Assembly: GCA_016870915.1 (NCBI GenBank)
Contig: VFZY01000014.1
Location: 1-49,427 of the forward strand
Length of the DNA: 49,427 bases
From: Acidobacteriota bacterium
GTDB taxonomy: Bacteria; Acidobacteriota; Terriglobia; Bryobacterales; Bryobacteraceae
Reading direction: 5' to 3'
Part shown: positions 35,080 through 44,941 of the stretch, in pieces
Layout of the letters: every line of letters begins with the position of its first letter
Numbering within the stretch: the first letter of the stretch is position 1
Translations under genes and position numbers: made by a program
Notes under the pieces: generated by a model
The model's input: the letters and a program-made list of their open reading frames with translations, nothing else
What the model was told of the DNA's origin: nothing
The model's database searches: none

Positions 35080-38000
35080 CTAAAACATGTACTTCAATCC
35101 GAACTGAACCACACGGGCATCGCCGGGCATACCCGCCGCGCCCTGATTCGTGCTCGTCACCCGGCCGAAGTTGTCAGGGTCGCGGATGTTCAAGCCCGGC
35201 GCCCCCAGGTTGACGTGGTTGAAGAAGTTGAACATCTCAACCCGGAACTGGAAGTTATGCCGCTCCCCGATGCGGAAGTTCTTGTTCGCCGACGCGTCCA
35301 CCTGGCTCAGCCCCGGCAGATGCAGCGCAATGCGCGGAGCCGATCCGAACGCTCCCGGCCTCGGCAGCGTGAATGCACTCGTGTTAAACCACCGCGCACG
35401 CGTCCGGCCCCCCCGGTCGAGCATCGCCTTCTGGCCCGCCACCGCCTCCGGCCGCGACACCACTCCGGTGCCTGTTGTGTCCACGACGCCTGCCAGCGCC
35501 GCACCGAAGCCCGTCTGCAGCGTCGTGATGGTGCCCAACTGCCACCCGCCCAGCAACGTTCTCACCGCCTGACGCGACGCATTCCGGAACAGCGGCACAT
35601 CGTAGATCGCCGCCAGCGAGAACCTGTGCCGGATGTCGAACACCGAATCCGACCGGCTTCCGCGCAGGTCAAAGTAATCCTGAATGCCCGACAGGAAAGA
35701 CCCTCCGCCCACGCTCGAGATATCCGCATTCGACAGGCTCTTCGACCACGTAAACGACCCTATCATCGTGAATCCGCTCGCCACCCGCCGCTCCGCCTTC
35801 ATCTGCAGCGAATGATAGGTCGAGTTCCCGATCGCCTTCGTCACGCTGATGTTGTCGAACCCCTGGAACGGCCGCCGGCTCGCAATCGACGGGGTTGTCG
35901 GCGAGGGCACCAGCGTCTGAATCGGCCGGTTCCCGTCGAACGTCGCCGTCAGCCGGGTTCCCTTCGATCCCACGTAACCCACATCCCAGAAAATGCCGCC
36001 CGGCAGCCGTTTCTGCAGCGTCAGGTTCCACTGCTGTGTGTAGCTGGTGCGCAGATGTGGATCAAGCGCGCCCGATCCAAACAGCCCCGCACGCGTCTGC
36101 CCCTGCGTCTGGAACGCCGTCTCCACCCGGATCGGGTTCGCCGCATTCCCCGTGAACGCGAACGTCTTCACAATCGGAGGATTCAGCGTCAGAGTCGTCC
36201 ACGAATTCGTGATCTCCGGCGTGAAATACACGCCATAGCCGCCACGCACCACAAAGTCGCTCAACCGCGGCACCTGGTAGGCAAACCCGAACCGCGGCCC
36301 GAAATCGTTCCGGTCCGGATACACCAGCGCCGCCGGCCGGTCCGATGTGTTGGGGATCTCCGGGAAACCGTGGAAGGTCTGCCGCACCGGCACAAACCCG
36401 TTCAGGTCGAAGTTGGTTGCGGTGCCGCGCTGCACCGGCGGCTTGAAGTACTCGTACCGCATCCCGTAGTTGATCGTCAGCCGTGGCGACACTTTCCAGT
36501 CGTCCTGAAAATAGTAGCCGTGCCAGTTGTTGTTCATGCGGGTCGCGAACGGCTCCACACTCACCTGCGCCGTAGTTGCCAGCCCCAGTAGAAACTCGGC
36601 GAACTGATGATCCCGCGTCGCCGCTCCAACTGCCGTCACCGTGCCGTCAAACCCGAACGAGCCACGCGCGTTCACCGCTTCGTCGAACGTCCAGTTCCGC
36701 CGCGCCACCAACCCGCCGATTTTCAGATTGTGCGCACCGCGCCTTACGGAAAGGTTGTCGCTCACCTGCCACAACTGGTTCAACCGGTCCCGGGGCCCAA
36801 TCCCGCGCACCGTCGGCAGCACATACCCCGCCGTGAACGTCGGTGGACCGAAATCGCGCGGACGCTTCGCCACGCCCGGAATCCCGATCAGATTCGCGAT
36901 ATCCAACTCGGGCTTGTCCGTCGTCCCGAAGAACTCATGCTCGAAGAACCGGTGCCACCCCAAGCGCAGTTCGTTGATCACCGTGGGCGAAAACACGTGC
37001 ACCTCCGCCAGGCTCGCATTCTGGCCGCGCGCCGTGTTTCCTCGCGTGTCGAACCCGAACGTCGGCGTCGTGTTGTCCGCCTGCTGGTTGTAGATATAGC
37101 TTACGGAAAGCGTATCGTTCGCGCCCAAATTCTGATCCACGCGCGCCACATGCTGATCCTGCGTGATCGGCGCCGCCACCCGAGGCCCCCGGAAGTTGAT
37201 CCCCGGTTCATTCGTGTTCGGCGAGGGAACCCAGCCGTCCAGGAACTTCCGCGCATAACCGGCAACCCGCGCCGCCGGAATCCGGTTGCCCGGAAACGGA
37301 GTCCGCGTCGCGGGATCGTTGATCACCGCCGCGACACCGGAAAAATCACCCTGCCGCTGAGCCGCCGGCGGCACCAGCGCCTGCCCGCCAAACGATCCGG
37401 CCACCTGACGCCCCGCCTCCCAGTTGTAGAAGAAGAATGTCTTGTTCTTCCCGTTGTAAATCTTCGGGATCAGCACCGGCCCGCCAATGTTCACGCCATA
37501 TTGATTCCTGTTCAAACGCGGCGGCTTCGCACCCGGCGTCCGTGGCTGAAAACCGTTCAGCGCCGTGAACGCATCGTTGCGGTTGAACTCCCACGCCGTC
37601 CAGTGATACGTGTTCGTTCCGCTCTTCGTCGTCAGATTCACCTGGCCGCCCGGCGCTCCGCCCACGTCCGCCGAATAGGTGCTGCTCTGCACCTTGAACT
37701 CATTGATCGCGTCGATCGATGGCGAAAAGCTGAAGCTATAGCTGTCCAGGTCCATCGCCTCAATCCCGTCGTAATAGAACCGGTTCTGCGTATCGCGAGC
37801 TCCATTCGCCGACATCCCCACTGCCTGTCCCACCGACCCGCGCAGACGCCGCACCGTAATGCTCCCCGGTGTGCCCGGATTCACCCCCGGCGTCAGCAGA
37901 GCCAGTTGCACGAAGCTCCGCCCGTTCAACGGAAGCTCAACCACCTTCTGCGAATCGATCACCGTGCCCACCGTGGCATTCTCGGTCTGCATCAGCAGCG

Positions 38001-38349
38001 CCGCCGCCTCCACCTTCACCGATTGCGCTGCCTGCCCCAGCGTCATCTTTACATCCACGCGCGCCACCTGATCCACACTCAGCGCCAGGCCCTCCACTTC
38101 CGCCCGTTGAAAGCCGGCCGCCTCCACGCTCATCGCATACGGGCCCACCGGCAGAAAATTGAACTCGTACCCGCCGCTCTGGTCCGTCTGCGCAGATCGC
38201 GCCAGGCCGGTCTGGGTGTTTCGCACCTCCACCTTGGCCGCCGCGATCACCGCTCCCGACGGGTCGGTCACCGTACCCACCACCTTCGCGGTCGTCGACT
38301 GCGCCATCGCCGCCGCCGCCGTCATCAAAGCGAGACAAAAAATACGCAT
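35080..38349 (-). CDS. Oar-type TonB-dependent receptor 6
   Basis: 1089 residues: signal peptide (MRIFCLALMTAAAAMAQ), regulatory domain (about 20-110: VGTVTDPSGAVIAAAKVEV, GGYEFNFLPVGPYAM), plug (LNGRSFVQLALLTPGV, SANGARDTQNRFYYDG, ADVGGAPGGQVNLTTKSGT) and a barrel ending VVQFGLKYMF. The start ATG is preceded by AGGGGGG, which doubles as its ribosome site and as the homopolymer at the end of the phosphatase gene. The unknown secreted protein follows 5 bp after the stop. Confidence 0.92.
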   Translation of the reverse strand: MRIFCLALMTAAAAMAQSTTAKVVGTVTDPSGAVIAAAKVEVRNTQTGLARSAQTDQSGGYEFNFLPVGPYAMSVEAAGFQRAEVEGLALSVDQVARVDVKMTLGQAAQSVKVEAAALLMQTENATVGTVIDSQKVVELPLNGRSFVQLALLTPGVNPGTPGSITVRRLRGSVGQAVGMSANGARDTQNRFYYDGIEAMDLDSYSFSFSPSIDAINEFKVQSSTYSADVGGAPGGQVNLTTKSGTNTYHWTAWEFNRNDAFTALNGFQPRTPGAKPPRLNRNQYGVNIGGPVLIPKIYNGKNKTFFFYNWEAGRQVAGSFGGQALVPPAAQRQGDFSGVAAVINDPATRTPFPGNRIPAARVAGYARKFLDGWVPSPNTNEPGINFRGPRVAAPITQDQHVARVDQNLGANDTLSVSYIYNQQADNTTPTFGFDTRGNTARGQNASLAEVHVFSPTVINELRLGWHRFFEHEFFGTTDKPELDIANLIGIPGVAKRPRDFGPPTFTAGYVLPTVRGIGPRDRLNQLWQVSDNLSVRRGAHNLKIGGLVARRNWTFDEAVNARGSFGFDGTVTAVGAATRDHQFAEFLLGLATTAQVSVEPFATRMNNNWHGYYFQDDWKVSPRLTINYGMRYEYFKPPVQRGTATNFDLNGFVPVRQTFHGFPEIPNTSDRPAALVYPDRNDFGPRFGFAYQVPRLSDFVVRGGYGVYFTPEITNSWTTLTLNPPIVKTFAFTGNAANPIRVETAFQTQGQTRAGLFGSGALDPHLRTSYTQQWNLTLQKRLPGGIFWDVGYVGSKGTRLTATFDGNRPIQTLVPSPTTPSIASRRPFQGFDNISVTKAIGNSTYHSLQMKAERRVASGFTMIGSFTWSKSLSNADISSVGGGSFLSGIQDYFDLRGSRSDSVFDIRHRFSLAAIYDVPLFRNASRQAVRTLLGGWQLGTITTLQTGFGAALAGVVDTTGTGVVSRPEAVAGQKAMLDRGGRTRARWFNTSAFTLPRPGAFGSAPRIALHLPGLSQVDASANKNFRIGERHNFQFRVEMFNFFNHVNLGAPGLNIRDPDNFGRVTSTNQGAAGMPGDARVVQFGLKYMF

Positions 38350-39904
38350 CAGGTTCTACCCCCCTCTTGTATTCGATCTCCCGAAATGCCTCCAGCCGGT
38401 CAATCTCCTCAACCGGCTGCGTCACGGGCGAACGGAAAAACCGCGTAACCATCGTATCGAAAGTGAAGTCCACCAGCAGGAAGCCGTTCTCTTCCACGGC
38501 CGGCAAGCGCTCCTCAACCGTCACATGCAACGACGGATACGGATGCGTCCGCCGCCCCTGCGAAGGCCACCCGTTCAGCGTGCTCACCGGGCCCGGCAGG
38601 ATCGCATGCACCGGCCGGCGGCTCAAATCCACCTTACCGGTCCGTACAATCCGCGCCTCTCCAATAGCGTGCATGTCGCCGCTGATCCACAGCGGCACCC
38701 GCTCCTCCATCGCCGAGGAAGCCTGCATCAGCCGGTCATGCTGAGCGGTCCATCCCGGCTGATAGAAAGGCTTTGGCACCTTGTGTGTCAGCCGCCCATC
38801 GGCGCCCAGAATGTCGGCGTACCAGTCGCCCCACTTGCCCGCGCTCCACACCGGCGGCATCGATGGCACGTTCACCACGTGTGCCGCTCCCGGCGCCGCC
38901 ATCCGGGCCTTGATCCAATCCTCGGCCTCCCGCGCAATCGTCACTGCGTTCTGCCCCGCCAGCGTCAGGTACCGCCGGCAGTCGAACAACAGGATCTCCG
39001 CCAACTGCCCGAACCGCAGCGTGCCATACGCCTCGCTGGTGCCCGCTGGAGCATCCGGCGCCGAGGAGCCCGGCAGTCCCACCGGCCGGTTCGCATCGGG
39101 CAGAAACTCCGGAAAGTACAGGCGCCGCGTCCCGCGCCCAAGCTGCAACATCAGATGATCGGGCGGGAACGTCACCATCCGCTCATTGGCGTCGTCGTTT
39201 TCAAAGTAATCGTGATCGTCCTGCAGGAAGTACGCCGGCGTCGACCGCAGCCGCGTTCCATACAACCGTCCGATCTGCTCCTGCGCCACCCGCTTCAGCA
39301 CATCCTCGTTCGCCGTGCCCAGCACCGGCAGCGTCCGGTCGAATCGTCCCACGGATCGCACCAACTCGTCGCGATATCCGGGTGGCGCGCCCGTCTGCCG
39401 CAGATCCCAATAGATGTGGTCCCCGTTCGCGATCACCGCGTCCGGCTGAAAGGTCAGCGCCCGGTCCAGCAGACGCTGCCTCCGCGCTATTGGGTGATAC
39501 ACCTTCAGCCCGCTCGGATTGATTGCCCGCTCATCACCGCCGGCGCAGGTGTAGATCAGCAGCCGGAAGCGTGCCGCCGCCGTCCCCGGCTCGGGAAACG
39601 TCGCCACCTTCCACACATCGCACAACGCCCGCTTGCGGCCATCGAACAACTCCAGCGTATGCGGAGTCCCCGGCGCAAGCCCCGTCACATCGAACTGCCA
39701 GAACCGGCCCGCCGTGTCCGACATCCGCCCAGCCGCAACCCGCTGCCCTACACGCAAGACCGGAGTTCCGGCCGGCGCACCCGCGAAAGATGCCTTCAAC
39801 AGCAGCCGCTCATGATTCACGGCCGGCACAAGATGCGTCACCGAACCCGGTTGCCAGGCCGCGGCCGCGGCGCTGGAAAGAAGAAACTCACGTCGGTTCA
39901 TCAT
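37937..39904 (-). CDS. Tat-exported PhoD-like metallophosphatase, stop lost at a G6 tract
   Basis: The conserved part is about 514 residues: a Tat signal (MMNRREFLLSSAAAAAW), a cap domain, then a PhoD-like metallophosphatase core with ANGDHIYWD, FLQDDHDYFEND and WISGDMHAIGEARI (metal-binding Asp, His and Asn). It should hydrolyse phosphate esters outside the cytoplasm. The family-like sequence ends at about EIDRLEAFREIEYKRG. There the message reads a run of six G (38359-38364); with five G a TAG (38356-38358) would end the gene. With six the frame continues about 140 residues through the start of receptor 6 as a Gly/Asp-rich tail that is not protein-like. Either slippage, a recent mutation or a base-call error explains this. 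The TPR gene ends 10 bp upstream. Confidence 0.8.
   Translation of the reverse strand: MMNRREFLLSSAAAAAWQPGSVTHLVPAVNHERLLLKASFAGAPAGTPVLRVGQRVAAGRMSDTAGRFWQFDVTGLAPGTPHTLELFDGRKRALCDVWKVATFPEPGTAAARFRLLIYTCAGGDERAINPSGLKVYHPIARRQRLLDRALTFQPDAVIANGDHIYWDLRQTGAPPGYRDELVRSVGRFDRTLPVLGTANEDVLKRVAQEQIGRLYGTRLRSTPAYFLQDDHDYFENDDANERMVTFPPDHLMLQLGRGTRRLYFPEFLPDANRPVGLPGSSAPDAPAGTSEAYGTLRFGQLAEILLFDCRRYLTLAGQNAVTIAREAEDWIKARMAAPGAAHVVNVPSMPPVWSAGKWGDWYADILGADGRLTHKVPKPFYQPGWTAQHDRLMQASSAMEERVPLWISGDMHAIGEARIVRTGKVDLSRRPVHAILPGPVSTLNGWPSQGRRTHPYPSLHVTVEERLPAVEENGFLLVDFTFDTMVTRFFRSPVTQPVEEIDRLEAFREIEYKRGVEPDAYFLSRFDDGGGGDGAVDDREGGGYGDRPVGSGDRGGQGGGAKHPDRPGAICADGPERRVRVQFSAGGPVCDERGGGRLSTGGSGGPGAECGSGGARGCKDDAGAGSAIGEGGGGGAADADRECHGGHGDRFAEGG
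38356..38364 (-). promoter_or_regulatory. G6 tract overlapping receptor 6 ribosome site and phosphatase stop
   Basis: On the minus strand six G followed by TAG, 6 bp before ATG 38349. Loss of one G puts the TAG in frame with the phosphatase. The same G-run is the only ribosome-site candidate for receptor 6, so length changes here could alter both genes. Confidence 0.55.
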
Positions 39905-43562: not shown

Positions 43563-44184
43563 CTGGCGGTTGGCACTCCATTGAGCGCAGCCGGGCCATT
43601 CAGGCATGTTCCGCCTCGGAACTCGGCGCTGTATCGTTCGTTTTGGCGGACGCACGAAGCGGGAACCCAATTGTGGAGAACACCTGGATCGCTGAGCGCG
43701 AGGCATCGGCCTGCTCCAGAACCGTGAGACGATCGGGACGGTTCGAACCACCGTTTTCCGCAAGTCCCCGGTCTCGGGTCTACCAGTGCCTCACCTACCA
43801 GAAAGGCCACCGCGGTGAGCGTGCGGCGTCCGCCGGATCACCCTCGATCAGATTGTCCTCCGAATCAATGTCGATCCGGCACGCGCTCGTCGTCCCGCGG
43901 GGCCGTTCACCAGACCCGAGCTCAATCGAGCAAACGACTGCCCCCTTGAACCGGGCCTCTCACCGTCCCTCGAACGGACTGGCCCCCTGAACCTGCGCAG
44001 CGCTCAACAGCACTGAAATCACGTAAGTGAATGTGAGCATGGTGGCCACCCCGGCACGTTCTCCTCCAATCGACAACCCGCCGGAAATTGACGAATTCCC
44101 GCGCGCATGGCCGGGCCTCGAAAGTACAGGTGCGCTGTTTCCGCATCACGGACCACCGTGCCGCGGCGAGCTACAAGAACAACA
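43563..44184. other. Non-coding stretch downstream of the ClpV-like gene
   Basis: About 620 bp without a convincing gene; short frames here have no recognisable domains. A perfect GGTTCGAACC palindrome is at 43740-43749. A signal-peptide-like stub is at 43960-44040 (listed separately). I see no terminator with a T-run after the ClpV-like stop. It may be decayed former coding sequence. Confidence 0.5.
43960..44040 (-). pseudogene. Possible stub of a secreted protein
   Basis: Minus-strand ATG 44040 opens 26 codons reading MLTFTYVISVLLSAAQVQGA then SPFEGR and a stop (43960-43962). It looks like a signal peptide plus the first mature residues, with a stop where more protein would be expected. 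The ribosome site is weak. It could be chance. Confidence 0.22.
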
Positions 44185-44216
44185 GGCGGGCGGACCACTC
44201 GTGCGGCCCGCCCGCC
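44185..44216 (-). terminator. Terminator of the PEP-CTERM gene
   Basis: A perfect 9-bp GC stem (GGCGGGCGG at 44185-44193 with CCGCCCGCC at 44208-44216) with a 14-nt loop, followed on the minus strand by TGTTGTTCTT. It lies 30 bp after the PEP-CTERM stop. Confidence 0.75.
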
Positions 44217-44246
44217 CAATTGATTTCCCGCTGGCTCGGTGACCCG

Positions 44247-44889
44247 TTACTTCCGTTTACGCGCCACCAGCGCTGCCAGCGCAAGGCCGCCCGCCATGAG
44301 CAGACTCGTGCCGGGCTCCGGAACCGCTGCCGGGGAATACGCCGTCAGCACGCGGATGTAGTCTCCCGGGGTGCTGGCCGTGAAGTCCACGCTGATCTGG
44401 TTTGGCCCGGAGATGGTCACAATGTCCCCTGTTTCAAGACCGCGTGCGCTCGGGTTCAGGTACGTCACGCCCGTGTTGGCCAAAAAGTCACTGGCCGCGA
44501 GGTTCGTTGTCGAGGTCAGAATCGCGACAATGGCCGAGTCAAAGTCCACCGTTCCTTTTACACGGCCAGAGGTTGGGTCGTAAAAGATATAGTGGCTCGC
44601 CACCGTGGTGCCGGTCGGCAGCGTCAGAGGGCCCGACGGAACGATGTTAACAGTCAGCGGAGCCGCCAAAACGATGTTCTGGTCCTCATCGAAGCCCCAC
44701 AGGTTGGGCGACTGGAAGGTGTCGTTGCCCACCGTGTTGTCCGGAGTGGACTCCGTAAACCCCGGTGCGAGCTTGACGAAAACTCCCCCCCCCGAACGTG
44801 ACAGTGCCACCAATGATGGTGGCTGTCGCCGGCAGGGTCATCGAAAACGCGGCTACGCACGCCGCAACTGTGATACGTGAAGATTGCAT
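44247..44889 (-). pseudogene. PEP-CTERM exoprotein gene, frame broken at a C9 tract
   Basis: The 5' part (ATG 44889, ribosome site AGGAAA 5-7 nt upstream) encodes a signal peptide, MQSSRITVAACVAAFSMTLP, and ATIIGGTVTFGGG. The 3' part, in another frame, encodes VFVKLAPGFTESTPDNTVGN onwards and ends with a PEP-CTERM sorting signal: VPEPGTS, a helix (LLMAGGLALAALV) and RKRK. The two parts meet at nine G on the minus strand (plus-strand C9, 44785-44793). With eight G they join as one 213-residue protein. Exported proteins of this class are processed by an exosortase and go to the envelope or matrix; no exosortase is in the window. True mutation, phase variation or a base-call error are all possible. 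Promoter and terminator are intact. Confidence 0.8.
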
Positions 44890-44922: not shown

Positions 44923-44941
44923 AGGCAATAGAAAATTGCCT
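44923..44941 (-). promoter_or_regulatory. 5'-leader hairpin of the PEP-CTERM gene
   Basis: AGGCAAT (44923-44929) and ATTGCCT (44935-44941) form a perfect 7-bp stem with a 5-nt loop. It sits in the predicted leader between the promoter and the ATG at 44889. It may protect the transcript or control translation. Confidence 0.4.

What the first reader, a model, noticed from the sequence alone, without database searches (positions are those of the whole stretch)
44785..44793. C9 homopolymer splits a PEP-CTERM gene: possible phase-variable surface protein
Seen: signal peptide in one frame, VPEPGTS sorting signal in another, with only a run of nine C between; eight would join them into 213 residues. 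Promoter, ribosome site, leader hairpin and terminator are intact, which argues against old decay. Long homopolymers in exported-protein genes are a known mode of phase variation. This is the second homopolymer-linked break in the window.
Basis: partly seen in the sequence, partly recalled or inferred. Interest (0 to 1): 0.6.

Follow-up and report, generated by a model that had tools for sequence, protein, structure and literature searches.

The report
Surface-protein gene broken at G-run
A bacterium's draft genome carries an otherwise healthy-looking gene for an exported, membrane-sorted protein whose reading frame is thrown off by one letter at a run of nine Gs; several unrelated genes in the same draft are broken at similar runs, so this is probably ordinary slippage or a miscounted run rather than a purpose-built on/off switch.

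Summary
C9 at 44785-44793 (G9 on the coding minus strand) is the only G/C run of 8 or more in the window. It separates a signal peptide (ATG 44889) from a frame ending in VPEPGTS (stop 44247). Read as eight, it gives 213 aa whose homologues in other phyla (42-56% identity) cross the junction in one frame, so this is one gene with one break. No distant homologue has a long G/C run at the point, and no close orthologue was found. Only one of 78 PEP-CTERM hits in the genome carries such a run. The genome has no excess of G/C runs of 8 or more. About half of those inside genes break the frame, in unrelated genes: TonB-type receptor, glycosyltransferase, MR/MLE-type enzyme, sigma-like protein, kinase-like tail. 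At the MR/MLE locus a 93%-identical copy in a relative has seven G and is intact. Another PEP-CTERM gene here is broken with no run at all. Best reading: one-base slippage at a chance-made mutable G tract, a genuine variant or a consensus miscount, not a dedicated switch. Phase variation remains possible (about 0.18); only read-level tract lengths can decide.

The parts
44785..44793 (-). G9 homopolymer (C9 on +), codons 33-35 of the gene; site of the frame break
44686..44889 (-). upstream frame as assembled: signal peptide and N-terminus, 67 aa, out of frame after the tract
   Evidence: N-terminal residues match homologues
44247..44794 (-). downstream frame: conserved domain (FDEDQNIV, RGLETGD, TASTPGDYIRVLT) and PEP-CTERM sorting signal
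   Evidence: PF07589 E 4.4e-6; homologues L007-L010
44897..44900 (-). AGGA, probable ribosome-binding site
   Evidence: read from the sequence
44923..44941 (-). 7-bp leader hairpin, not better than shuffles
   Evidence: z -1.07
44183..44218 (-). strong terminator-like stem-loop after the stop codon
   Evidence: (z -4.12)

Best explanation
A recently intact gene for a small PEP-CTERM (exosortase-sorted, exported) protein is out of frame by one base at a G9 run. The run arose by ordinary sequence composition at a glycine-rich turn just after the signal peptide. Such runs slip easily, so the ninth G is either a genuine slippage mutation carried by part or all of the sampled population or a miscounted run in the draft consensus. 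As assembled the cell would make a 67-aa exported stub and no sorted protein. Shown: the break, the single-gene nature, the exosortase in the genome, and that other G/C runs of 8-9 in this genome also break unrelated genes. Inferred: slippage as the cause, and the absence of a dedicated switch.
For: Homologues cross the junction in frame. Runs of 8 or more: 32 in the genome (18 of eight, 14 of nine or more), not above Markov expectation (37-92 for 8 or more, 6-20 for 9 or more). Of about 12 runs clearly inside coding sequence, six break the frame and six do not, against 84 of 6092 same-strand frame changes at random sites (Fisher p 7e-9). Broken genes are functionally mixed: TonB-type receptor, GT2, MR/MLE family enzyme, sigma-like and kinase-like tail (inferred from sequence). 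MR/MLE locus: G8 here, G7 and intact in a 93%-identical copy of a relative. Only one of 78 PEP-CTERM hits has a run of 8 or more in it. A second PEP-CTERM gene (C40) is broken without any run. Two of about eight coding G9 runs in relatives, one in a 3-contig genome, also break genes.
Against: Short contigs suggest short-read assembly, in which a wrong consensus at G9 is uncommon (my knowledge; platform not known). Three of the six broken genes (this one, the receptor, the glycosyltransferase) act at the cell surface, as phase-variable genes do. The tract lies near the 5' end. The classification of runs rests on my own codon model and small numbers; the C110 case is less clean.
Confidence: 0.75

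Rival explanations
1. True contingency locus: slipped-strand mispairing at the G run reversibly switches the PEP-CTERM protein on (8 or 11) and off (9, 10), so that a population always holds both states.
For: Run of nine G, early in an exported-protein gene, other parts intact; one base restores the frame; receptor and glycosyltransferase genes in the same genome are also out of frame at G8-G9 runs.
Against: No run at this point in four distant homologues; no enrichment of runs in the genome or among its 78 PEP-CTERM hits; other broken genes include enzymes and regulators; no length variation observed. Poly-G and poly-C tracts are generally under-represented in prokaryotic genes (PMC2831843).
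Confidence: 0.18
2. Recoding: RNA polymerase slippage on G9 (or a +1 ribosomal shift) yields a fraction of in-frame product, so the gene is not off.
For: Long homopolymers are slippery for RNA polymerase (PMC3711429 and PMC2831843 discuss this for A/T runs).
Against: Known cases are mostly A/T runs; no conserved run or stimulatory element in homologues; leader hairpin no better than chance.
Confidence: 0.04
3. Old pseudogene in decay, the G9 run being a secondary change.
For: The protein family is nearly absent from relatives, so the gene could be dispensable.
Against: Downstream frame open for 178 codons with coding-like composition and conserved residues kept; terminator and ribosome site present.
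Confidence: 0.03

Closest known systems
PEP-CTERM / exosortase substrates (PF07589, TIGR02595)
   Same: N-terminal signal peptide, C-terminal VPEP, hydrophobic stretch, RKRK tail; exosortase gene in the genome and 78 PEP-CTERM hits
   Different: reading frame broken between the two ends; body belongs to no named NCBIfam equivalog
Poly-G/poly-C contingency genes of Neisseria, Campylobacter, Helicobacter, Bordetella (slipped-strand phase variation)
   Same: G run of 8-10 near the start of an exported-protein gene, one-base change toggles frame
   Different: no observed length variation, no conserved run in homologues, no genome-wide enrichment of runs
Poly-A tract inactivation of inlA in Listeria (PMC2831843)
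   Same: homopolymer near the 5' end where indels inactivate a surface protein
   Different: A run and strain-level evidence there; G run and a single draft genome here

Membership tests
PEP-CTERM exosortase substrate | signal peptide plus C-terminal PEP motif, hydrophobic segment and basic tail in one reading frame | tested here: inconclusive
   both ends present but in different frames as assembled; in one frame in homologues L008-L010, L007 having VPAP
PEP-CTERM exosortase substrate | exosortase encoded in the same genome | tested here: met
   PF09721 E 1e-67 at C93
Homopolymer phase-variable (contingency) gene | long mononucleotide run inside the gene or promoter | tested here: met
   G9, codons 33-35
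Homopolymer phase-variable (contingency) gene | reversible variation of run length between cells | not testable with these tools
   no reads and no second strain held
Homopolymer phase-variable (contingency) gene | run retained at the same place in orthologues | tested here: not met
   no G/C run at the point in four homologues at 42-56% identity; no close orthologue in 101 relatives, so the test is weak
Homopolymer phase-variable (contingency) gene | runs enriched in the genome, or concentrated in surface genes | tested here: not met
   32 runs of 8 or more, not above expectation; broken genes of mixed function; 1 of 78 PEP-CTERM hits
Programmed frameshift or transcriptional slippage gene | conserved slippery site in the gene family | tested here: not met
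   homologues are in one frame with no slippery run

The most novel reading that the evidence does not exclude
The G9 run is a working contingency switch for an exosortase-sorted protein, one of a small set of G8-G9 switches (with a TonB-type receptor and a glycosyltransferase) that diversify the cell surface of this bacterium. A full-text search for PEP-CTERM with phase variation found only four papers holding both terms, with few mentions (papers not read), so this seems undescribed in the open library searched.
Probability: 0.15. Interest if true: 0.55.

Novelty: already known. Interest (0 to 1): 0.2.

Why it matters
If the switch were real it would extend homopolymer phase variation to exosortase-sorted proteins and to a lineage where I found no report of it. 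As it stands the practical lesson is that G/C runs of eight or more in draft genomes of this group are hot spots of apparent frame breaks, so a single-genome break at such a run should not be read as phase variation without read-level evidence.

Tried and rejected
Homologues sought in viral contigs and plasmids: none. Profile search over 396 genomes of the phylum found only partial, distant matches outside the own genome. The C131 tract first looked like a break, but is the junction of two genes; likewise the G7 at L101:9650. The C7 run at 35408 is in an intact gene. Shared leader hairpin among PEP-CTERM genes: not found in 30 loci apart from one unrelated stem. Literature: no paper in the library joins PEP-CTERM, exosortase and Acidobacteria; gene content suggested that phylum to me, but the lineage was not identified by name with the tools.

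Full report
What is there. The window is contig 14 of a 6.61-Mb, 367-contig draft genome. At 44785-44793 the plus strand reads CCCCCCCCC, the only G/C run of eight or more in the window. On the minus strand an ATG at 44889, preceded by AGGA, opens a signal peptide (MQSSRITVAACVAAFSMTLPATA) and reads into three GGG codons. After nine G the frame is lost and stops 67 codons from the ATG. The next frame runs to 44247 and ends in a PEP-CTERM signal (PF07589). With eight G the two make 213 residues.

One gene, one break. Four homologues outside the group (MAGs labelled Rhodobacteraceae, Rhodocyclaceae, Rhodospirillaceae and Omnitrophota; 42-56% identity over the whole length) carry both halves in one frame and align without trouble across the junction: ATIIGGxVTxG...GGVFVKL. 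At the junction they use mixed glycine codons; none has a G/C run there, and L007 has a G6 a few codons upstream. The gene is almost absent from the 101 nearest genomes and from 396 genomes of the phylum. A weaker paralogue on contig 24 is intact. The genome has one exosortase and 78 PEP-CTERM hits, so the protein would have a sorting partner.

Signals around it. The terminator is strong (z -4.1). The leader hairpin is a true stem but no better than shuffles. No sigma-70-type promoter met the scan's cut-off. 'Intact control signals' is therefore only partly borne out, and what is there is unremarkable.

Is the run special in this genome? There are 32 G/C runs of eight or more, 14 of nine or more. 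Markov models of order 2-5 from 849 kb of this genome predict 37-92 and 6-20: no excess. Eleven exact G9 runs compare with 0-29 in 40 relatives.

Do such runs break other genes? A 3-periodic codon model trained on 373 long frames was laid over both sides of each run, and the frames were then read by eye. Six runs break the frame: this gene; a carboxypeptidase-regulatory/TonB-type receptor on C325; a family-2 glycosyltransferase on C38; an MR/MLE-type enzyme on C230; a sigma-like protein on C25; and a kinase/propeller-like tail on C110 (the last less clean). Pfam supports the receptor, glycosyltransferase and enzyme. The sigma-like protein has one-frame homologues in relatives spanning its break. 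Six other runs lie in intact frames. Same-strand frame changes at random sites, gene junctions included, are 84 of 6092 (Fisher p about 7e-9). So G/C runs of eight or more are hot spots of frame loss here, whatever the gene does. In relatives, two of about eight coding G9 runs also break genes, one in a three-contig genome.

Direct evidence of length change. The enzyme on C230 has a 93%-identical copy in relative G023 that is intact with seven G, where this genome has eight. Other relatives have interrupted codons (such as GGCGGG) there. The same kind of event, one base gained in a chance-made run, explains the PEP-CTERM gene.

Breaks without runs. A second PEP-CTERM gene (C40:16635-17166) is split between two frames with no run of five or more at the junction, and a relative's homologue crosses that junction in one frame. 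The draft therefore carries a general load of small indels, genuine or technical.

Verdict. The best account is incidental slippage at a mutable run, either a real variant or a miscount in the consensus; the tools cannot separate these two. A dedicated phase-variable switch is possible but lacks its defining evidence and fails the conservation and enrichment tests that could be run. The conservation test is weak because no close orthologue is held.

Literature. Homopolymer tracts near gene starts are a recognised route of gene inactivation, mostly A/T; G/C tracts are generally under-represented (PMC2831843). Isolated frame breaks are usually attributed to indels or sequencing error, clustered ones to phase variation or recoding among other causes (PMC3711429). 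Homopolymers are prone to sequencing and bioinformatic artefacts (PMC8808543). Four papers in the library hold both PEP-CTERM and phase variation, with few mentions; I did not read them.

Noticed in passing
window 38359-38364 (minus strand), gene 37937-39904: A phosphatase-like gene runs about 140 codons into the following TonB-type receptor gene; homologues in relatives end at about EIEYKRG, at a G6 run. Probably a second one-base indel.
   Followed up: partly
L068 (G000 C40:16635-17166): Another PEP-CTERM gene is split between two frames with no homopolymer at the junction; a homologue in G011 is continuous.
   Followed up: partly
L059 (G000 C15, near 38194-38265): A peptidyl-prolyl isomerase-like frame is followed, one base out of frame, by an orphan PEP-CTERM tail (GSDTTLTIEYSGAVPEPS...), as if a PEP-CTERM isomerase were broken at a G4.
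   Followed up: no
L053 (G000 C325, tract at 2957): G9 run breaks a CarboxypepD_reg/TonB-type outer-membrane protein gene into frames of about 324 and 685 codons.
   Followed up: partly
L049 and L142 (G000 C230 and G023 C434): MR/MLE-type enzyme broken at G8 here; 93%-identical DNA in a different genus of the family is intact with G7, far closer than other relatives (about 63% protein identity), hinting at recent transfer or a mis-binned contig.
   Followed up: partly
L050 (G000 C250:8873-8888): A C16 run three bases from a contig end, the look of an assembly artefact.
   Followed up: no
L007-L010: The nearest homologues of the window's PEP-CTERM protein lie in other phyla while the own family nearly lacks it, suggesting horizontal transfer of an unnamed PEP-CTERM family (motifs GFDEDQ, RGLE, TASxPGD).
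   Followed up: partly
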